64,000 nt of DNA from Peptoniphilus genitalis (GTDB taxonomy: Bacteria > Bacillota > Clostridia > Tissierellales > Peptoniphilaceae). Under the pieces are notes generated by a model. That model made no database searches. It saw nothing but the letters and a program-made list of their open reading frames with translations, and had not been told where the DNA came from. Position numbers and translations under genes: made by a program. Below are positions 7,779 through 17,982 of this stretch, one piece after another. The stretch spans positions 1,300,501 through 1,364,500 of the forward strand of contig NZ_CP097885.1 in NCBI RefSeq assembly GCF_023614525.1, given 5' to 3'. Each line of letters begins with the position of its first letter. Position 1 is the first letter of the stretch.

Positions 7779-7804
7779 TTTAAGCAAAATTTATTAGGAG
7801 ATTG

Positions 7805-8728
7805 GTGAGATTGAAAAATTTAGAAAATTTAAGTTTAGAAGAAAAAATTGAAATATTAAAGAAATTAAAGGAAGAGAGGGATGCAGTTATACTTGCACAC
7901 TTTTATGTTGATGAAGAGATCCAAGCTGTGGCTGACTACATAGGAGATTCTTTTTTCTTAGCTCAAAAGGCTACTGAACTAAAAGAAGGAACCATAGTCA
8001 TGGCAGGAGTCTACTTCATGGGAGAAAGTGTTAAGATTTTAAATCCAAGCAAGAATGTTTTGATGCCCGACCTTGAAGCGGACTGTCCCATGGCCCACAT
8101 GGTGAGCATTGAAAAAATTAAGGAGATGAGAGAAGCCTACGATGACCTAGCAGTTGTAACTTACATAAATTCTACTGCAGAGATCAAGGCCTACTCGGAT
8201 ATTTGTGTCACATCTTCCAACGCTGCAAAGATTGTAAACAAATTAGAAGAAAAGAATATATTTTTTGTGCCAGATAAAAATCTTGGGGCGTATATTAAAA
8301 AGTCCTTGCCAGATAAAAATGTAATTTTAAACGACGGCTACTGTCCTGTTCACGACGAGATAGACCTTGAAGATGTGAAGGCCTACAAGGGCAGGGTAAA
8401 AATTTTGGCTCATCCAGAATGTAGGAAAGAAGTCTTAGACCTTGCTGACTTCATAGGGTCTACAAAGGCAATTATTAATGAAGCAGGAAAGTATGATGAT
8501 GTTTTAGTTGTCACTGAAGAAGGAATTTTTACTGAGTTAAAGAAAAAATATCCAGAGGTAAACTTTAGAAAGCTTGCCAAGGGACCAATTTGCGATGACA
8601 TGAAAAAATTGACTCTTGATAAGATTATCGAGGTCTTAGAAGAAAATAAAAATCAAGTGGAAGTACCAAGAGAAATTAGGGAAAGAGCTTTGAAGCCACT
8701 AGAAAAAATGTTGGAGTTAGGTGCATAG
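7805..8728 (+). CDS. nadA: Quinolinate synthase NadA
   Basis: Condenses iminoaspartate with dihydroxyacetone phosphate to quinolinate using a [4Fe-4S] cluster. The three cluster cysteines are expected in DCPMAHM, GYCPVHDE/HPEC and GPICDDMKK; substrate-site motifs ILAHFYV, YINSTAEIKA and PDKNLG are present. About 307 residues, normal length. AGGAG ends at 7800; GTG 7805 and TTG 7811 are both possible starts (4 and 10 bases away), and I use GTG. First gene of nadA-nadB-nadC-niaR, with nadB starting one base after its stop. Confidence 0.93.
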   Translation: MRLKNLENLSLEEKIEILKKLKEERDAVILAHFYVDEEIQAVADYIGDSFFLAQKATELKEGTIVMAGVYFMGESVKILNPSKNVLMPDLEADCPMAHMVSIEKIKEMREAYDDLAVVTYINSTAEIKAYSDICVTSSNAAKIVNKLEEKNIFFVPDKNLGAYIKKSLPDKNVILNDGYCPVHDEIDLEDVKAYKGRVKILAHPECRKEVLDLADFIGSTKAIINEAGKYDDVLVVTEEGIFTELKKKYPEVNFRKLAKGPICDDMKKLTLDKIIEVLEENKNQVEVPREIRERALKPLEKMLELGA

Positions 8729-8729
8729 G

Positions 8730-9992
8730 ATGAAAAAATTTGATGTTTTAATTGTTGGGTCAGGTCTTGCTGGAGTCAGCACTGCCCTAGAACTAAGTAA
8801 AGATTATAAAATTGGTCTTGTAACGAAGAAAAATTTAGAAGATTCAAATTCTTATCTTGCCCAAGGAGGGATAAATGTATTAAGAGATGATGACGACAGA
8901 CAAGTTTTCATCGAGGACACCATGAAGGCTGGTCACTACAAAAATGATTTGAAGTCTGTTGAGACCATGGTGGACAAGTCCCAAGAGGCAATTGAGTTTT
9001 TAATGGATCTTGGAGTTGAGTTCACAAAGAAAGATGGTCAACTTGATTATGCAAGAGAGGGAGGTCACTCTGCATCAAGGGGACTTCACATTGACGATGA
9101 GATTGGCAAGGGAATCTTGGATGTCCTCTATAAAAGGCTAAGAGAAAGATCAAACATAGAAATATTTGAAGACACTCCCATACTTGACCTTATTGTAAAA
9201 GATGGCAAGTGTTACGGAGCAAAGTCTCGTGATGAAGTTTTTATTTCTACAAATGTTGTCCTTGCAACTGGTGGACTAGGTGGACTCTTTGACAAGTCTA
9301 CTAACTTCCCTCATATCTCAGGCGACGGACTTGCCATGGCAATAAAAAATGGTGTCAAGATAAAGGACATATCTTACATTCAATTTCATCCAACTTCCCT
9401 TTATGAAGAGGGAGTGGAAAGGCAACTATTAATATCTGAATCTGCTAGGGGAGAAGGTGCAGTCCTACTTAATCACGAGGACCAGAGATTCACAGATGAA
9501 ATGAAGCCGAGAGACATAGTAGCAGGTGCCATAAAAAATGAAATGGAAAGAGAAGGAGTAGACTTTGAATACTTGTCTATGAAGCCCCTTGGAGAAGAAA
9601 GAATTCCCAAGAGATTTCCAATGATTTTTGATGAGTTAAAAGCCAGGGGGATAGACCCAAGATACGAAAATATTCCAATAGTTCCCTGCCAACACTACAC
9701 CATGGGAGGAATAGAGTGCGACATTGAAGGAAAGACTAACCTAGAGGGACTCTTTGTAGTCGGCGAGGCTGGCAACGTTGGAATTCATGGTTCCAATAGA
9801 CTTGCTTGCAATTCCCTTTTAGAGTGCCTGGTCTTTGGAAGAATTTTGGCAGACTACTTAAATGAAAATAAACTTGAAGAAAAAGAAATAGACTTTACAA
9901 TTGACACAAAAGACCTTGATGGAGAAGATAAGAAAAAAATTATTTTTGAAAGGATAAGAGAAGATGAGAGAGCTAAAGCCAATCTTAATTGA
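8730..9992 (+). CDS. nadB: L-aspartate oxidase NadB, short form
   Basis: FAD-dependent oxidation of L-aspartate to iminoaspartate, passed to NadA. Motifs: GSGLAG dinucleotide fold, SYLAQGGINV, REGGHSASRGLHID, HPTSLYE, SARGEGAVL, CQHYTMGGIE and GNVGIHGSNRLACNSLLE. At 420 residues it lacks nearly all of the C-terminal helical domain of typical NadB (about 510-540 residues): the sequence runs from the FAD-binding GSNRLACNSLLE motif into a short charged tail. The 3' end overlaps nadC by 29 bases, so the short form looks natural and not broken. Start ATG 8730 follows the nadA stop. Confidence 0.9.
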   Translation: MKKFDVLIVGSGLAGVSTALELSKDYKIGLVTKKNLEDSNSYLAQGGINVLRDDDDRQVFIEDTMKAGHYKNDLKSVETMVDKSQEAIEFLMDLGVEFTKKDGQLDYAREGGHSASRGLHIDDEIGKGILDVLYKRLRERSNIEIFEDTPILDLIVKDGKCYGAKSRDEVFISTNVVLATGGLGGLFDKSTNFPHISGDGLAMAIKNGVKIKDISYIQFHPTSLYEEGVERQLLISESARGEGAVLLNHEDQRFTDEMKPRDIVAGAIKNEMEREGVDFEYLSMKPLGEERIPKRFPMIFDELKARGIDPRYENIPIVPCQHYTMGGIECDIEGKTNLEGLFVVGEAGNVGIHGSNRLACNSLLECLVFGRILADYLNENKLEEKEIDFTIDTKDLDGEDKKKIIFERIREDERAKANLN

Positions 9993-10809
9993 CAAGTATA
10001 TACTTGCAGCTCTGCAAGAAGACATGACAAGTGGAGACATTACCACTGATGCCATCTTAAAAGATGAGAGGGCAGAGGTAAATTTAAGAGCCAAGGACAA
10101 GGGAATCCTTGCAGGACTTGATGTCTTTAAGAGGGTCTTTGAAATCTTAGATGAGGATGTGAGCTTTGAATTTTATTTTTCTGATGGCGATGAGGTTAAT
10201 AATAAGGACTTAATAGGAAAAATAAGTGGAAGGGCCAAGGCAATCCTTGAGGGAGAAAGGACAGCTCTAAACTTCTTGCAAAGGATGAGCGGGATTGCAA
10301 CTTACACAAAGAAAATGCTTGATGCCCTTGACAGCGACCATGTAAAAATTCTTGACACAAGAAAGACAACACCTAACATGAGGATTTTTGAAAAGTATGC
10401 GGTGACACTTGGAGGAGCTTACAACCACAGGTACAATTTATCTGATGGAATTATGCTTAAGGACAACCACATAGATGCAGCTGGTGGAATAAGAGAGGCA
10501 GTTGAAAAAGTGAGAAGTCTCAATCCCTTTGTAAAGAAAATCGAAGTTGAAGTAGAAAATTTTGACCAAGTTAGGGAAACCTTAGAGGCAAAAGCTGATA
10601 TAATAATGTTAGACAACATGGATATAGAAGAGATAAAAGAAGCCTGCAAGATAATTAATAAGAGAGCCATCATTGAGTGCTCAGGTAACATTAGCCTTGA
10701 AAATATAAATTCTTATAGGGACCTAGACATTGATTATATTTCTTCAGGTGCAATAACTTATAGTGCAGGAGTACTTGACCTATCTATGAAAAATTTGAAA
10801 ATCTATTGA
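9964..10809 (+). CDS. nadC: Nicotinate-nucleotide pyrophosphorylase NadC
   Basis: Converts quinolinate and PRPP to nicotinate mononucleotide with loss of CO2, completing the branch begun by nadA and nadB. 281 residues, standard length, with LQRMSGIATYTK, KILDTRKTTPNMR, HRYNLSDGIMLKDNHI and the barrel end ISSGAITYS. It begins inside the nadB 3' end, indicating translational coupling. niaR follows seven bases after its stop. Confidence 0.95.
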   Translation: MRELKPILIDKYILAALQEDMTSGDITTDAILKDERAEVNLRAKDKGILAGLDVFKRVFEILDEDVSFEFYFSDGDEVNNKDLIGKISGRAKAILEGERTALNFLQRMSGIATYTKKMLDALDSDHVKILDTRKTTPNMRIFEKYAVTLGGAYNHRYNLSDGIMLKDNHIDAAGGIREAVEKVRSLNPFVKKIEVEVENFDQVRETLEAKADIIMLDNMDIEEIKEACKIINKRAIIECSGNISLENINSYRDLDIDYISSGAITYSAGVLDLSMKNLKIY

Positions 10810-10816
10810 GGGAGAT

Positions 10817-11326
10817 ATGTTAGATCCAAAATCAAGAAGAGAAGACTTGTTAAAATTTTTATACGAAAATCAAAAGCCCATGTCGGGAGAAAATCTGGCA
10901 AAAAAGTTTGATGTGACAAGACAGGTTATAGTCCAAGACATGGCAATACTCAGGGCCAGCGGCAAGGATATTGTCTCAACTAATAGGGGCTACTACTTAA
11001 ACGAAGCTAGGACCCAAAAAGTTTTTAAGGTCAAGCACAGTGACAAGGACATAAAAAAAGAACTAGAAGCCATTGTTGACCTAGGAGGACTTGTTAAGGA
11101 TGTCATTGTCCACCACAAGGTTTATGGTGAGATAAAAAAAGATTTAAATTGTTCATCAAGAAGGGACATAAAAATTTTTTTAGAGAAGATGGATGAAGAA
11201 AAATCCAAACCCCTTGACGTGCTAACAGGTGGAGTCCACTACCATACAGTAGTAGCAGAAAACGAAGAAGTCATGGAAGAAATAGAAGTTGTCTTGGGGG
11301 AAATGGGATTTTTAATAGAGGACTAA
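10817..11326 (+). CDS. niaR: NiaR/YrxA-type repressor of NAD synthesis
   Basis: 169 residues: N-terminal HTH_11 winged helix (SGENLAKKFDVTRQVIVQDMA, about residues 22-42) and a C-terminal 3H domain with the conserved histidines in VHHKVYGEI and GGVHYHTVV, which bind metal and nicotinate in this family. NiaR represses de novo NAD genes when nicotinic acid is present. Its place at the end of the nad operon implies autoregulation through the palindrome at 7732. Confidence 0.9.
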   Translation: MLDPKSRREDLLKFLYENQKPMSGENLAKKFDVTRQVIVQDMAILRASGKDIVSTNRGYYLNEARTQKVFKVKHSDKDIKKELEAIVDLGGLVKDVIVHHKVYGEIKKDLNCSSRRDIKIFLEKMDEEKSKPLDVLTGGVHYHTVVAENEEVMEEIEVVLGEMGFLIED

Positions 11327-11353: not shown

Positions 11354-11400
11354 TTGTAAAAATTTACATTACAAGAGATAAAGATTAAAAAGTAAAATAA

Positions 11401-11454
11401 TTTACACAAAATTTACAAAAGACTTCTTGGCAATTTACAAAGCAAAATTATAAT
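11401..11454 (+). promoter_or_regulatory. Pho box and promoter of the pst operon
   Basis: TTTACA occurs at 11401, 11412 and 11434, with a degenerate CTTCTT at 11423, giving four slots on an exact 11-base period; another TTTACA is at 11363. This is the layout of B. subtilis PhoP boxes (TT-A-ACA hexamers with 5-base gaps). The last slots overlap TTGGCA (11427-11432), 16 bases from TATAAT (11449-11454). The cognate regulator is probably the phoP-like gene of the same operon. Confidence 0.85.
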
Positions 11455-11500: not shown

Positions 11501-12403
11501 ATGAAGTTAAAAAGTTTTGGTAAGGTTGCTGTAGTTCTTGGTCTTGCTACAAGTCTTGTCGCTTGTGGAGGAAACAAAAAGGAAGAAGCCACTGCTAATG
11601 CTGGTGGAAAAGAAGAAGGAAAGACTCTTGGAAAAATTAATGTTATATCAAGGGAACAAGGCTCTGGAACAAGATCAGCCTTCACTGAACTAACTGGCGT
11701 TCTTGTTAAGGATGGAGACAAGGAAACTGACAATACTTATGCAGAAGCTGCTGTTCAATCTTCTACTGATGCAGTTCTTACTGCAGTACAAAATGACGCC
11801 GCTTCTATTGGTTATATTTCTCTTGGATCTTTAAATGATGATGTCAAGGCTTTAAAGCTTGAAGGAGTTGAAGCCACTCCAGAAAATATTAAGGCAAACA
11901 CTTATAAGCTTGCAAGACCTTTTAACCTTGCTTACAAAAAAGACCTAGATGAAAAAGCTATGGACCTTGTTAAGTTTGTAATGTCTGATGAAGGACAAAA
12001 GATTTGTGAAGATGAAGGATATGTTGGCGATGCTAAGGGAGAAACTTACGCACCGGTTGACAACGATGCAAAGTTAACTGTAGCAGGTTCAACTTCTGTC
12101 ACTCCTCTTATGGAAAAACTTGTTGAAGCCTACAAGGCAAAGAACCCTAAGGTTGAAATTGATATCCAATCTAATGGTTCATCAGCAGGTATGACTGCTG
12201 CAATGGAAGGAACTGCACAAATTGGTATGGCATCAAGAGAGCTTAAGGACGAAGAAAAGAAGGCTCTTGACTTCACAGTTATTGCAAGAGATGGTATCGC
12301 AGTTATAGTAAACAAAGAAAACCCTGCAGAAGATGTAACTATGGATAACTTAAAACAAATCTTTACTGGAGAATTAACAGATTGGTCAGAACTTGCAAAA
12401 TAA
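11501..12403 (+). CDS. pstS: Phosphate-binding lipoprotein PstS with permuted domain order
   Basis: Signal peptide with lipobox LVAC (Cys22), so anchored outside the membrane. The segment that normally lies in the second half of PstS (SREQGSGTR, residues 50-58, followed by IGYISLG and GQKICEDEGYV) comes first, and the normal N-terminal segment (LTVAGSTSVTPLME from about 192, then SNGSSAG, IGMASREL, IVNKENP, IFTGELTDW) comes last, ending the protein. All expected phosphate-contact motifs are present but in circularly permuted order; 300 residues is otherwise normal. First gene of the pst operon behind the Pho box. Confidence 0.88.
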   Translation: MKLKSFGKVAVVLGLATSLVACGGNKKEEATANAGGKEEGKTLGKINVISREQGSGTRSAFTELTGVLVKDGDKETDNTYAEAAVQSSTDAVLTAVQNDAASIGYISLGSLNDDVKALKLEGVEATPENIKANTYKLARPFNLAYKKDLDEKAMDLVKFVMSDEGQKICEDEGYVGDAKGETYAPVDNDAKLTVAGSTSVTPLMEKLVEAYKAKNPKVEIDIQSNGSSAGMTAAMEGTAQIGMASRELKDEEKKALDFTVIARDGIAVIVNKENPAEDVTMDNLKQIFTGELTDWSELAK

Positions 12404-12420: not shown

Positions 12421-13329
12421 ATGGAAAATATTAATATAAAGGCCCCTCGAGATGACAAGAGGACCAGGACATTTTCGTGGGAAGAAGTATCTAAGTACTT
12501 CTTCCTACTTTGTTCTGTTCTTTCAATTTTCTTCTTACTCTTAATTTGCGTATTTATCTTCAAAGATTCAATAGAATTTTTTGGAAAGCTAGGAGTGAAG
12601 GATTTTATCTTAAATGACTCTTGGGCACCTATGAATCAACCGCCAACTTATGGAATCTTATCCATGATTCTTGGCTCAATAATTATTACAGCCCTATCAT
12701 GCTTGGGAGCAGTGCCTGTTGCCATTATGGTGGCAGCCTACTTGGCCTTTGATTGTCCCAAAAAATTTTACAAGATTTTAAAACCAGGACTTAATTTAAT
12801 GACAGGGATCCCATCAATTGTTTATGGTTTCTTTGCCCTAACAATTATTGTTCCTATTAACAAAAGTATTTTTGGTGGAAATGGAATGAATATTTTAAGT
12901 GCGGCAATTCTACTTTTAATAATGATTCTACCAACAATAATTTCTATGGCAGAAGCTTCACTTAGGACTGTGCCAAAGTCTTATTACTCAGGTTCACTTT
13001 CTCTTGGCGCAAGTCACGATGAAACTATAACAAGAGTTATGATACCTGCTGCAAGATCAGGAATCTTTGCAGGGATAATACTTGGAATTGGACGTGCTAT
13101 TGGTGAAACTATGGCAGTAATCCTCGTTGCTGGTAACCAAACAAGACTTACACTTAACCCTCTCAAGGGAATTAGAACTATGACTACAAATATTGTTTTG
13201 GAAATGGCTTATGCTGCTGGCGACCACAGACAAGCCTTAATAGCAACAGCAGGAGTCCTATTTATATTTATCTTAATAATAAATACAAGCTTCTTCATAG
13301 TTAAGAATAGGAGAGAAAAAAATGACTAA
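12421..13329 (+). CDS. pstC: Phosphate ABC transporter permease PstC
   Basis: 302 residues with six predicted membrane helices and the BPD_transp_1 EAA-type loop in SLRTVPKSYYSGSLSLGAS and RAIGETMAV. The start is ATG 12421, where AAGGAAA precedes it; the frame is open further upstream, but that part overlaps pstS. Forms the inner-membrane channel with PstA, energised by PstB. The 3' end overlaps pstA by 8 bases. Confidence 0.93.
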   Translation: MENINIKAPRDDKRTRTFSWEEVSKYFFLLCSVLSIFFLLLICVFIFKDSIEFFGKLGVKDFILNDSWAPMNQPPTYGILSMILGSIIITALSCLGAVPVAIMVAAYLAFDCPKKFYKILKPGLNLMTGIPSIVYGFFALTIIVPINKSIFGGNGMNILSAAILLLIMILPTIISMAEASLRTVPKSYYSGSLSLGASHDETITRVMIPAARSGIFAGIILGIGRAIGETMAVILVAGNQTRLTLNPLKGIRTMTTNIVLEMAYAAGDHRQALIATAGVLFIFILIINTSFFIVKNRREKND

Positions 13330-14203
13330 AATAATTGTCCTAGGTCTCTTGGCTATATTTATAATCTCAATTCTTGGACTTCACTTTGTTGGGAAGATGT
13401 CCTTTTATAAAATAACTACAAGACTATTTTCTGCAATGACTCTTGGAGTCCTAGTCTTTATAGTTTTATTTGTTGTAGTAAAGGGAGCCATGTCCTTTAA
13501 ACCAAGCATGCTATCCCTTAAGTATTCAACAGAAAATCTCTCCATGGGTCCTGCCATTGTAACAACACTTTTAACAGTTGTCCTTTCAATTTTATTGGCA
13601 TCACCTATAGGAATCTTTACTGCCATCTTCCTAGTTGAGTACACTAGGGTGGAAAATAAACTCGTAAGGGCAATTAGGCTTGCAACAGAAACTCTTGCAG
13701 GCATACCTTCCATTGTATATGGACTTTTTGGGATGTTGTTCTTTGGACTAAAATTAAAAATGGGATTCTCAGTAATTTCTGGTGTCCTAACAGTTTCTAT
13801 TATGATTCTGCCAATTATTATTAGGGCAACAGAGGAAGCTTTAAAGTCAGTCCACCCATCAGTAAGGCAAGGTTCACTTGCCCTTGGTGCTGGTAAGCTT
13901 AGGACAATCTTCAAGGTTGTGCTACCAATAGCAATCCCAGGGATCTTATCAGGTATAATTTTATCTGTAGGCCGTGTAGTTGGAGAAACTGCTGCCCTTA
14001 TGTACACACTGGGAACAGCAACATCTCTTCCAACTTCTCTTAAATCATCTTCAAGGACTCTTGCCCTTCACATGTATGTACTTTCATCTGAGGGTAAGCA
14101 CGTTGGAGAAGCCTATGCAAGTGGTATGGTCCTCTTGATTTTAGTTTTAATAATTAACTGGTCTTCCACAAAACTTGCAAACAAACTTAGTGAGGTTGAA
14201 TAA
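13322..14203 (+). CDS. pstA: Phosphate ABC transporter permease PstA
   Basis: 293 residues; membrane helices throughout and the permease loop motifs [20 protein letters not shown] and [13 protein letters not shown]. Second channel subunit with PstC. The stop and the pstB start share bases (TAATG), so translation is coupled. Confidence 0.93.
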
Positions 14204-14958
14204 TGAATACAAAAATGAGCGTTAAGGACTTGAATCTTTACTACGGAGACTTTCAAGCCCTTCACAATATAAATTTAGACATAAAAGAAAAGGAAATTCT
14301 TTCCTTTATTGGACCATCAGGTTGCGGCAAGTCTACCCTATTAAAATGCTTAAATAGGATGAACGACCTAGTCCTTGGCTGCACGATTGATGGAGAAATA
14401 AAACTTGATGGCGACGACATCTACGCCAAGAATTATGATGTAAATAAACTTAGAAAAAGAGTGGGAATGGTATTCCAACAACCTAACCCCTTTCCAATGA
14501 GCATCTACGAAAATATTGCCTATGGACCAAAGACTCATGGGATAAAAAACAAGGCTGAGCTTGATGAAATTGTTGAATCATCACTTAAGCAAGCTGCAAT
14601 TTGGGATGAAGTAAAAAATGATTTAAAGAAGTCTGCCCTTTCCATATCAGGAGGCCAACAACAAAGGCTTTGTATAGCAAGAGCTCTTGCAGTTAATCCA
14701 GAAGTAATTCTAATGGACGAACCAACATCTGCCCTTGACCCAATTTCTACAGGAAAGATTGAGGACCTTGCCCAAGATCTAAAGGACAAGTACACAATTG
14801 TAATGGTAACTCACAACATGCAACAGGCATCAAGAATATCTGATCAAACTGCCTTCTTCTTAAATGGAGTTATTGTTGAGAAGGGAAAGACTGTGGATAT
14901 CTTTACAAATCCAAGGGAAGAAAAAACGGAATTATATGTAACAGGAAGGTTCGGCTAA
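14203..14958 (+). CDS. pstB: Phosphate ABC transporter ATPase PstB
   Basis: 251 residues with Walker [10 protein letters not shown], the family mark LKCLNRMND after it, Q-loop VFQQPNPFP, signature [17 protein letters not shown] and Walker [14 protein letters not shown]. The C-terminal [13 protein letters not shown] and YVTGRFG end are diagnostic for PstB. Overlaps both pstA and phoU by one base or more, TAATG style. Confidence 0.96.
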
Positions 14959-15596
14959 TGAGAAAAAGATTTGATGATGAATTAAGGCACTTAAATGACT
15001 TGGTTTTAGAGATGGCAAGTCTAAATGAGTCAGCCATTAAAAAGGCAATTTCACTTTTAGATGAAAAGAATAAAAATATTGCAGAAGATGTCATCCATGA
15101 TGAAGAGAGGACAGACCAATACGAAAAGACTATCCAAAACCAATGCCTTAAAATTTTTGTAGAGCAACAACCAGCAGCAAGTGACCTTAGGAGGGTCTCT
15201 TCTGCCTTAAAGATGATTACAGACTTAGAAAGGATTGGAGACAATGCAAGAGACATTGCAGAAATTTGCATGGGCCTCCCAGATGACTGTGACACAACAA
15301 GCCTCCCTCTTATAAAAGAAATGGCTGAGGCCACAGTAAATTTATTAAATAGGTCCATTGATTCCTTTGTAAATCTAGATTTAGAACTTGCAAAAAAAAT
15401 TGATGACGAAGACGACGTAGTTGACAATTATTTTCTAATGATAAGAGACCAATTAATTGATATAATTAAGGCAGATTTTGACCCAGGGGCTGCCATTGAC
15501 TTTATAATGATTGCCAAGTATCTGGAAAGAATTTCTGATCATGGAGTAAACATTGCTGACTGGGTAATCTTTACTGTAGAAGGTTCAAGAACTTAA
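14958..15596 (+). CDS. phoU: PhoU phosphate signalling regulator
   Basis: 212 residues, all helical, with two PhoU repeats that each carry the acidic metal-binding motif (RRVSSALKMITDLERIGDNARDI and YLERISDHGVNIADW; conserved E/D-R-x-D/G-x). PhoU couples Pst transport state to the PhoR kinase and keeps Pho genes off when phosphate is ample. Here phoP and phoR follow immediately. Confidence 0.95.
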   Translation: MRKRFDDELRHLNDLVLEMASLNESAIKKAISLLDEKNKNIAEDVIHDEERTDQYEKTIQNQCLKIFVEQQPAASDLRRVSSALKMITDLERIGDNARDIAEICMGLPDDCDTTSLPLIKEMAEATVNLLNRSIDSFVNLDLELAKKIDDEDDVVDNYFLMIRDQLIDIIKADFDPGAAIDFIMIAKYLERISDHGVNIADWVIFTVEGSRT

Positions 15597-15626: not shown

Positions 15627-16307
15627 ATGCTAATTTATCTCGTTGAAGATGATACATCGATTTTAAAATTAATTGAATACTCCCTAAAGACTAAGGGCTA
15701 TGAGGTCAGGGCCTTTGAAAGGGGCAAGGACTTTTTTAAAGTTCTTGAAGAAAGAAAAGCTGACCTCGTCCTCCTTGACATAATGCTGCCCGACATGGAC
15801 GGGATTGAAATTTTAAAAAGACTTAGGGAGAGAGAAGACACAAGGGATACTTGGGTCATAATGATAACTGCCAAGACCTCAGAATACGATGTGATCTCTG
15901 CCCTTGACGAAGGAGCAGACGACTACATCAAGAAGCCCTTCTCTGTCATGGAACTTTTATCAAGAGTTGGGGCAGTGGAAAGACGTGCTGGCAAAAAAGT
16001 TGTGGACACAGGAGTCCTTGACTACAATGGAATTGTTATTAAGGACAAGAACAGGTCCGTTACTATTGATGGAGTCCAAGTTGACTTTAGTTTAAAAGAA
16101 TATGAAGTTTTAAAATACTTAATTTTAAATAAGGACATAGTTATATCTCGTGAGAAACTCTTAACAGAAATTTGGGGTTACGATTATGAGGGAGAAACTA
16201 GGACTGTTGACATGCACATAAAGTTAATAAGGGACAAGCTTGGCGACAAGAGAAATTCCATCAAGACCATTAGGGGTATTGGTTACATGATGACCAAGGA
16301 GGAATAA
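15627..16307 (+). CDS. phoP: PhoP/PhoB-like response regulator
   Basis: 226 residues: receiver with acidic EDD, Asp in DLVLLDIMLPDMDG and Lys in DDYIKKPFS, then an OmpR-type winged helix ending RGIGYMMTKEE. An AAGGATG site precedes ATG 15627. Being between phoU and a PAS-containing kinase and behind a Pho-box promoter, it is the probable PhoP, autoregulating the whole operon. The symbol rests on context. Confidence 0.87.
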   Translation: MLIYLVEDDTSILKLIEYSLKTKGYEVRAFERGKDFFKVLEERKADLVLLDIMLPDMDGIEILKRLREREDTRDTWVIMITAKTSEYDVISALDEGADDYIKKPFSVMELLSRVGAVERRAGKKVVDTGVLDYNGIVIKDKNRSVTIDGVQVDFSLKEYEVLKYLILNKDIVISREKLLTEIWGYDYEGETRTVDMHIKLIRDKLGDKRNSIKTIRGIGYMMTKEE

Positions 16308-16308
16308 G

Positions 16309-17982
16309 ATGAAGAAAAGATTTTTCAGATACCTCCTTGGCATTGCCCTCTTGACCTTATTTTTATCAACTGTGGCATCCATGTTTATTTTTTATTCTGG
16401 ATATGCCAAGAGGTCTAACGAAGACTTGAGAAATATCGTCATGGCCATGGGAGAAAGTCTCAACAAGGATGAAGATGACATAGCTTACTTGGAAGGACTT
16501 GCAAATAAAAAATTGGATTTCAGGATAACTTTGATAAGAGATGACGGCGAAGTTCTTTATGATTCAAAAAAGGATGTAAAGCTCTTGGCATCTCACAAGG
16601 ATAGGCCAGAATTCATTGAAGCAAAACGACTTGGCTATGCCCAAGTGGAAAGATATTCTAACACACTTTCCAAGGACCTCTACTATGTCAGCCTAAGGCT
16701 TGATGATGGAAATATGATTAGGATTTCTAGAGAGATGGACAACTTAATCGGTGCCTTCACAAAGGTCCTTCCCCTTGACATCTTAATGTCTATAGTGATT
16801 TTTATAGTGGCAGCTCTCGTTTCAAAGACCTTAACTAAGAAGACCTTTGAGCCACTTAACAGTCTTGAAGAAGACCTACTTAGTCTCGACACAAATATTT
16901 TTCCAGAGCTAAGTCCCTTCATCAATAGGATAAAAAAACAAAAGATAACTATAGATGAGAGCTACAGGGAGATTGAAAGAGAGAGGGACACAATTAATAC
17001 AATCCTAAAAAACATGAGGGAGTCCCTTATTATTGTTGATGAAAATAAAAACCTCTTGGCAGTGAATGACTCTGCAAGAGAAATTTTTAAGTCTAAGAGA
17101 GAAATCCTTGGAGAAAATATAATCAACCTAATAAGAGATGAAGAAATTTTAAAAATGACTGACGAGGCCCTTATGGGAAAGAGCATCGAAGCCATAACAA
17201 GAATTGGCGACAGAGACTACAAGTACTATGTAAATCCAGTCTATGAAGACAAGAGGGTGAGGGGACTTTTGATCCTCTTCATTGATGAGACAGAAGAGAT
17301 TAGGGCCCTAAGACTTCGTGAAGAATTTTCATCAAATGTCAGTCACGAGTTAAAGACTCCCTTGACATCAATTTCTGGTTTTTCAGAACTTCTTGTCAAT
17401 AACTTAGTAGAAGACAAGGACAAGGAAGGATTTTACAAATTAATTTATGATGATTCCAAGAGGCTCCTAAGTCTTGTGGAAGACATTATGAAAATTTCTG
17501 GACTTGAAAATGCAGGAGACTACGACAAGGAAGAAGTAGATTTAAGAGAAATTATTTCTGAAGTCCTAAAGGGATATGAAAATTTGATTGAAGAAAAAAA
17601 TCTTGAAGTTAAGCTTGAAGGACAAGGCACTGTCTTTGAAAACAGGACCATGATCTGGGAACTCTTCTCCAACTTAATTAACAATGGACTTAAGTACAAC
17701 AAGGAGGGGGGAAGGCTAGATATAAAAATTTCTGAAGAAGAAAGAGCCTACAAGATTATAATTGCCGACACAGGAATTGGAATCCCCCAAGAAGACCTTG
17801 CAAGGATCTTTGAAAGATTTTACAGGGTGGACAAGTCTAGGTCACGCAAAGTCGGTGGAACAGGTCTTGGCCTCTCAATAGTAAAACACATCTTGCAAAA
17901 GATTGGTGGCAAGGTAAAAATTTCTTCACAACTAGGTCAGGGAACGACCTTTGAATTACTTTTAAACAAAGAAAATAAATAA
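16309..17982 (+). CDS. phoR: PhoR-like sensor histidine kinase
   Basis: 557 residues: membrane helix 1 (about 8-30), extracytoplasmic segment, membrane helix 2 (about 153-172), PAS domain (about 225-330), HisKA with His346 in SSNVSHELKTPLTSI, and HATPase with NLINNGLKYNKEGG, DTGIGIPQED and GGTGLGLSIVKHI. The order and length match PhoR of Gram-positive bacteria. Starts one base after the phoP stop. Confidence 0.9.
   Translation: MKKRFFRYLLGIALLTLFLSTVASMFIFYSGYAKRSNEDLRNIVMAMGESLNKDEDDIAYLEGLANKKLDFRITLIRDDGEVLYDSKKDVKLLASHKDRPEFIEAKRLGYAQVERYSNTLSKDLYYVSLRLDDGNMIRISREMDNLIGAFTKVLPLDILMSIVIFIVAALVSKTLTKKTFEPLNSLEEDLLSLDTNIFPELSPFINRIKKQKITIDESYREIERERDTINTILKNMRESLIIVDENKNLLAVNDSAREIFKSKREILGENIINLIRDEEILKMTDEALMGKSIEAITRIGDRDYKYYVNPVYEDKRVRGLLILFIDETEEIRALRLREEFSSNVSHELKTPLTSISGFSELLVNNLVEDKDKEGFYKLIYDDSKRLLSLVEDIMKISGLENAGDYDKEEVDLREIISEVLKGYENLIEEKNLEVKLEGQGTVFENRTMIWELFSNLINNGLKYNKEGGRLDIKISEEERAYKIIIADTGIGIPQEDLARIFERFYRVDKSRSRKVGGTGLGLSIVKHILQKIGGKVKISSQLGQGTTFELLLNKENK

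What the first reader, a model, noticed from the sequence alone, without database searches (positions are those of the whole stretch)
11501..12403. Naturally circularly permuted PstS
The phosphate-binding motifs are all present but the half that normally comes second (SREQGSGTR near residue 50 to GQKICEDEG) is placed right after the lipobox, and the normal first half (AGSTSVTPLM at about 195 to IFTGELTDW) ends the protein. This is a circular permutation relative to known PstS proteins, in a single intact frame with normal length and in a normal pst operon. Duplication followed by loss of outer halves is a plausible origin.
Basis: partly seen in the sequence, partly recalled or inferred. Interest (0 to 1): 0.75.

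Follow-up and report, generated by a model that had tools for sequence, protein, structure and literature searches.

The report
Phosphate-catching protein with swapped halves
This gene encodes a protein of the phosphate-binding PstS family whose two halves stand in swapped order compared with the textbook version; many related bacteria and one solved structure share that order, and the protein likely still captures phosphate for the cell.

The parts
11501..12403 (+). permuted pstS gene (order: signal/lipobox - B half - linker - A half)
11501..11566 (+). predicted lipoprotein signal peptide; lipobox SLVAC ending at Cys22
   Evidence: read from the sequence; Cys22 invariant in 32 aligned proteins, own included; signal processing not tested
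11633..12025 (+). B half (residues 45-175), normally the second half of PstS, with SREQGSGTR and EGQKI motifs
   Evidence: half-HMM boundaries
12026..12067 (+). linker joining old C-terminus to old N-terminus (residues 176-189, 14 aa)
   Evidence: B-A gap median 14 aa (13-30) in 144 B-A rows
12068..12400 (+). A half (residues 190-300), normally the first half of PstS, with AGSTSVTPLM and IFTGELTDW motifs
   Evidence: half-HMM boundaries
11401..11439 (+). PhoP-box-like hexamers TTTACA at 11401, 11412 and 11434 (11-bp phase)
   Evidence: only TTTACA-N5-TTTACA in the window, expected 0.03; same trio with 11/22 spacing in 12 of 12 loci examined; PhoP binding is inferred, box consensus recalled
12421..13329 (+). 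pstC (permease)
   Evidence: TIGR02138 265.2 bits, cut-off 196.45; ATG start read
13322..14203 (+). pstA (permease)
   Evidence: TIGR00974 241.9 bits, cut-off 193.45
14203..14958 (+). pstB (ATPase)
   Evidence: TIGR00972 417.9 bits, cut-off 343.2
14958..15596 (+). phoU
   Evidence: TIGR02135 184.5 bits, cut-off 130.25
15627..16307 (+). PhoB/PhoP-like response regulator
   Evidence: best model PhoB TIGR02154, 200.3 bits, below its cut-off of 296.2
16309..17982 (+). PnpS/PhoR-like sensor kinase
   Evidence: best model PnpS NF046044, 310.5 bits, below its cut-off of 400

Best explanation
The gene encodes a predicted lipoprotein of the PstS family whose two sequence halves stand in swapped order (B then A), the order also seen in pneumococcal PstS2 (PDB 4h1x), and it likely binds phosphate outside the cell and hands it to the PstCAB transporter encoded just downstream. 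The order is shown by sequence; the fold is predicted with high confidence and matches a solved structure. The swap leaves the phosphate-loop residues of both halves in place. By inference from the PstS fold, the old termini, both on lobe I, are joined by a short linker of about 14 residues, and the new termini lie at the A/B boundary in lobe II, so the lipid anchor would sit on the other lobe. The likely history is one circular permutation in a Firmicutes-like ancestor, by in-frame tandem duplication (A-B-A-B) and loss of the outer halves, followed by vertical descent and some transfer to other phyla; the duplication route is inferred, not shown.
Against: L118 and L112 fall among A-B rows on long branches, and holding all 40 B-A rows together costs 26.7 log-likelihood units (AU p 0.057), so one origin is not shown. 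With those two left out the 38 others are one side of a branch, but with only 69/20 support. Every A-B-A (9 of 9) and B-A-B (4 of 4) protein mixes A-B-type and B-A-type halves (near ties: B of P0139 and P0142, first A of P0341, A of P0260), so none looks like an ancestral intermediate, and all halves of the A-B-A-B proteins are A-B-type (20 of 20, by only 3-7 bits for the B halves of P0258 and P0259), so those duplications lie in other lineages. The curated PstS model cut-off is not reached (191.9 of 206.6 bits). In pneumococcus the single pst2 deletion alone did not lower uptake at 1 mM phosphate; only the double mutant did. Phosphate binding by this protein and the position of the anchor were not tested.
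Confidence: 0.88

Rival explanations
1. The permutation is real but arose two or more times; divergent B-A proteins such as L118 and L112 are separate events at the same hinge.
For: L118 and L112 sit among A-B rows in the free tree; L118 has a 30-residue linker against a median of 14; AU for one clade p 0.057.
Against: Neither alone is rejected from the B-A group (L118 p 0.144, L112 p 0.365); both are flagged as the long branches of the tree; the best matches of L118 in its family and in the class sample are B-A proteins, the top six in the family at 39-43% identity along the whole length, though a collinear query favours these.
Confidence: 0.2
2. The permuted order arose by fission and re-fusion: the halves became separate genes and were rejoined in the other order.
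For: One genome has A and B on two overlapping ORFs (L105), so halves can at least become separate.
Against: Tandem whole-gene duplications in one frame are seen repeatedly (20 A-B-A-B, 2 A-B-A-B-A-B of 356 listed proteins) and neighbouring duplicate genes too (L114-L116); L105 may be a plain frameshift, with an intact A-B gene elsewhere in that genome (L106).
Confidence: 0.15
3. The protein binds another oxyanion or small ligand rather than phosphate.
For: No ligand data here; the PBP fold is shared by many specificities.
Against: Phosphate-loop residues conserved, full pst operon with phoU and a PnpS/PhoR-like kinase, PhoP-like boxes upstream, homologous Pst2 system implicated in phosphate uptake (PMC4913102, passages).
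Confidence: 0.06
4. Assembly or frame artefact that shuffled a normal pstS gene.
For: None found.
Against: Single-contig genome, one intact frame, same order in all 14 genomes of the genus sampled, own included, and in 93 of 120 of the family, and in 79 of 80 named loci.
Confidence: 0.01

Closest known systems
Streptococcus pneumoniae PstS2 (SP_2084), PDB 4h1x
   Different: Pneumococcus has it beside a second, normal-order PstS1 (4exl aligns in two swapped stretches with our protein); in the window's genome it is the only PstS found.
Canonical PstS (E. coli type; C. perfringens 4q8r, 4gd5, V. cholerae 1twy)
   Same: Both halves and most loop residues; PstS of this type is the binding protein of Pst operons (general knowledge).
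   Different: A-B order instead of B-A; only half aligns at a time.
TpMglB-2 of Treponema pallidum, 'Type Ic / Cluster Bc' (PMC4990184, passages read)
   Same: Naturally circularly permuted, tethered solute-binding lipoprotein, with relatives in Gram-positives; ligand binding retained.
   Different: Glucose-binding type I fold with permuted N-lobe strands; here a PstS of the phosphate family.
Tandem PstS proteins (A-B-A-B, e.g. P0240 of a Clostridium sp.)
   Same: Contain the same B-A junction inside a longer chain.
   Different: Two complete copies, all halves of A-B type.

Membership tests
B-A (PstS2-type, 4h1x) PstS | B half precedes A half in one chain, collinear with 4h1x | tested here: met
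   one stretch, 41-298; 44-299 on 35-291
B-A (PstS2-type, 4h1x) PstS | Same three-dimensional fold along the whole chain | tested here: met
B-A (PstS2-type, 4h1x) PstS | Encoded in a pst operon | tested here: met
   pstC, pstA, pstB, phoU all above curated cut-offs
B-A (PstS2-type, 4h1x) PstS | Binds phosphate | not testable with these tools
   loop residues conserved, binding itself not measured
Canonical PstS (TIGR02136) | Profile matched in its own order, A then B | tested here: not met
   two stretches in swapped order
Canonical PstS (TIGR02136) | Whole-protein score over the curated cut-off | tested here: not met
   191.9 against 206.6 bits; two other B-A proteins 190.6 and 190.8, an A-B protein 243.4
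Canonical PstS (TIGR02136) | Both halves homologous to PstS | tested here: met
TpMglB-2 type permuted solute-binding proteins (Type Ic) | Circularly permuted solute-binding lipoprotein | tested here: met
   order; lipobox read from sequence
TpMglB-2 type permuted solute-binding proteins (Type Ic) | Type I sugar-binding fold | tested here: inconclusive
   no TpMglB-2 or other MglB title among the 50 rows; all seven Pfam hits are to PBP-superfamily, extracellular solute-binding or LysR-substrate models

The most novel reading that the evidence does not exclude
A single ancient circular permutation created a second, unrecognised class of PstS (a permuted type II solute-binding protein) that became the main or only PstS in a large part of the Clostridia and in pneumococcal Pst2; it moved the lipid anchor to the opposite lobe and thereby changed how PstS docks on PstCA and how PhoU reads the transporter, which would help explain why the two pneumococcal systems (normal PstS1, permuted PstS2) are wired differently.
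Probability: 0.3. Interest if true: 0.7.

Novelty: new variant of a known kind. Interest (0 to 1): 0.5.

Why it matters
Natural circular permutations are hard to trace because intermediates vanish. Here one family shows the normal order, whole tandem duplications, triple repeats, recombinant 1.5-copy forms and a widespread permuted order, so the duplication route can be tested directly. It also has a practical side: the three B-A proteins scored here fall below the PstS model's cut-off (191.9, 190.6 and 190.8 bits against 206.6), and several listed B-A proteins carry only the name 'substrate-binding domain-containing protein', while others are named PstS, so automatic annotation can miss PstS in these genomes.

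Tried and rejected
Artefact of frame or assembly: rejected. A-B-A and B-A-B proteins as ancestral intermediates: first taken as such from P0079 and P0117, then rejected, because type-specific half models show every one to be a mosaic of A-B-type and B-A-type halves (near ties told in the Against line). All 13 come from sources tagged only 'ena', 12 of them as clusters of one sequence, and no full A-B-A frame was seen among the 80 named genome loci, so some may be assembly chimeras; this was not resolved. A second independent permutation for L118: not supported, not excluded. Tree rows dropped before the careful tree: L108, L109 and L110 (A-B matches of low score in longer proteins), L111 and L113 (very long branch), L033_215 (fragment); B-A rows thinned at 70% identity (144 to 41), A-B at 85% (49 to 46); the per-half trees also leave out L118 and L112.

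Literature: no description of a permuted PstS found by the searches (open-access library only; subscription papers and the PDB entry's own notes unseen; most hits seen as listings only). [quoted passage not shown] PstS not mentioned). A paper on pst evolution in Firmicutes, looked up by a DOI recalled from memory, is not held, so a mention there cannot be excluded. The title of PDB 9l8j speaks of an 'evolutionary hotspot'; no paper on it was found. Absent's 50 rows: 4h1x; absent's 50 rows: E. coli PstS. These absences are told only here.

Full report
What is there. The ORF at 11501-12403 (+) is 300 residues long with an ATG start, a lipobox ending at Cys22 and no internal stop. I call the half that normally comes first in PstS 'A' (AGSTSVTPLM to IFTGELTDW) and the half that normally comes second 'B' (SREQGSGTR to EGQKI). 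The protein reads signal - B (45-175) - 14-residue linker - A (190-300). TIGR02136 and Pfam PBP_like_2 match in two stretches each, the first part of the profile lying at the C-terminus. The curated PstS score is missed (191.9 of 206.6 bits), as in two other B-A proteins (190.6, 190.8), while an A-B protein reaches 243.4.

Surroundings. Downstream lie pstC, pstA, pstB and phoU, all above curated cut-offs, then a PhoB-like regulator and a PnpS/PhoR-like kinase, both below the cut-offs of their best models. Upstream, TTTACA-N5-TTTACA at 11401-11417 is the only such pair in 64 kb (expected 0.03), with a third hexamer at 11434. The same trio with 11- and 22-base steps stands before the gene in 12 of 12 loci examined (own, ten of the same genus, one of another genus of the family). 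That these are PhoP boxes is inference from a recalled Bacillus consensus. No other PstS was found in the genome: the second hit is 33% identical over residues 2-133 only and has no match to the half models.

How common. In samples of whole genomes I counted, from the listings, a single full-length collinear (B-A) match in 93 of 120 genomes of the family (108 have any match), in at least 38 of 196 of the class (121 have any match) and in 14 of 398 of the phylum at E <= 1e-30 (29 have any match); own genome included each time. The tallies are and add up to 139 different genomes. They include Lachnospiraceae, Acetivibrio, Acidaminococcaceae and the actinobacterium Parvibacter caecicola; a Treponema saccharophilum plasmid also has it in one piece. 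Named protein hits include Peptoniphilus and Carnobacterium.

One event or several. After putting all rows in A-B order, 37 of 40 B-A rows form one cluster (99/93), and a 38th joins it with weak support (69/20). L112 and L118 lie among A-B rows on long branches. Holding all 40 together is not rejected (AU p 0.057), nor is adding L118 (0.144) or L112 (0.365) singly. Trees of each half alone, without those two, separate B-A from A-B on one branch (SH-aLRT 87 and 85, quick method, few columns), so both halves seem to share one history. A-B is the order in E. coli PstS and in the solved PstS structures matched end to end by the control, so B-A is taken as derived (inference).

Route. Whole in-frame duplications exist: 20 A-B-A-B and two A-B-A-B-A-B among 356 listed proteins (the lists are the best 120 of three searches), one in a single-contig 3.8-Mb genome and one in a congener. 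The middle of such a protein is a B-A unit with a 7-residue joint (two proteins). Nine A-B-A and four B-A-B proteins looked like the missing stage, but half models show A-B-A to begin with an A-B-type A (9 of 9, one by only 3 bits) and to end with a B-A-type A (9 of 9); their B half is clearly B-A-type in seven and a near tie in two. B-A-B proteins are B-A-type, B-A-type (one A by only 6 bits), then A-B-type (4 of 4). They are recombinants, or assembly chimeras, of modern A-B and B-A genes. All halves of all 20 A-B-A-B proteins are A-B-type, in P0258 and P0259 by small margins. So the duplication step is shown to occur in the family, but not in the ancestor of the B-A clade.

How it likely works. 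G196, S197, S199, S227, S245, D264 and R51, E52, G54, S55, G56, T57 are identical in 140 of 140 B-A rows (rows of L033, L112 and L118 left out), so the phosphate loops of both halves appear intact. That they bind phosphate is inferred from homology (the E. coli ligand residues are recalled) and from the operon. In pneumococcus, loss of both Pst1 and Pst2, not of either alone, lowers phosphate uptake by about 50% at 1 mM phosphate, which implicates the system with the permuted PstS2 (PMC4913102, passages). From the known domain division of PstS (recalled) the cut lies in lobe II and the joint in lobe I; the lipid anchor would then sit on lobe II. The consequence for docking is untested.

What is known. 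A naturally permuted, tethered solute-binding protein is described for glucose (TpMglB-2; 'Type Ic'; PMC4990184, passages), with a suggestion that tethering may favour such topologies. Nine searches of the open-access library found no description of a permuted PstS. I therefore file the protein with the PstS2 (4h1x) type, not as a canonical TIGR02136 member, and rate it a new variant of a known kind: a known protein and structure whose permuted, clade-wide nature seems undescribed.

Noticed in passing
L103:1632-3224(-), L104:1850-3481(-): PstS lipoproteins made of two complete copies in one frame (A-B-A-B) in two species of one genus; 20 such proteins and two triple ones (P0243, P0244, 836 aa) among the 356 listed hits.
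   Followed up: partly
P0117, P0121, P0123, P0125, P0139, P0142, P0158, P0288, P0341 (A-B-A); P0079, P0168, P0250, P0260 (B-A-B); P0122 (B-A-B-A): 1.5-copy and double forms from sources tagged 'ena'; the 13 1.5-copy forms mix halves of the A-B and B-A types, as if recombined between paralogous genes (or assembled wrongly).
   Followed up: partly
11363-11439: PhoP-box-like TTTACA hexamers before pstS; three of them in 11-bp phase, conserved in 12 of 12 loci examined.
   Followed up: partly
L114:1227-3220, L115:792-2812, L116:880-2761: Two permuted pstS genes side by side in several genomes of the family; in L114 and L115 one copy is much diverged.
   Followed up: no
L105:796-1679(-): A and B halves on two overlapping ORFs (frameshift or natural split); an intact A-B gene is elsewhere in the same genome (L106).
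   Followed up: no
L118:1139-2119(+): Strongly diverged B-A protein with a 30-residue joint, followed by a pstC-like permease gene (read by eye); possible second permutation or fast-evolving member.
   Followed up: partly
window 11501-12403 and B-A relatives: Three of three B-A proteins scored fall just under the TIGR02136 cut-off; databases name several of them only 'substrate-binding domain-containing protein'.
   Followed up: partly
window 7802-10809: nadA, nadB and nadC NAD-synthesis genes directly upstream, followed by a helix-turn-helix-like gene (10817-11326, read by eye) without an NCBIfam hit at E <= 1e-20.
   Followed up: no
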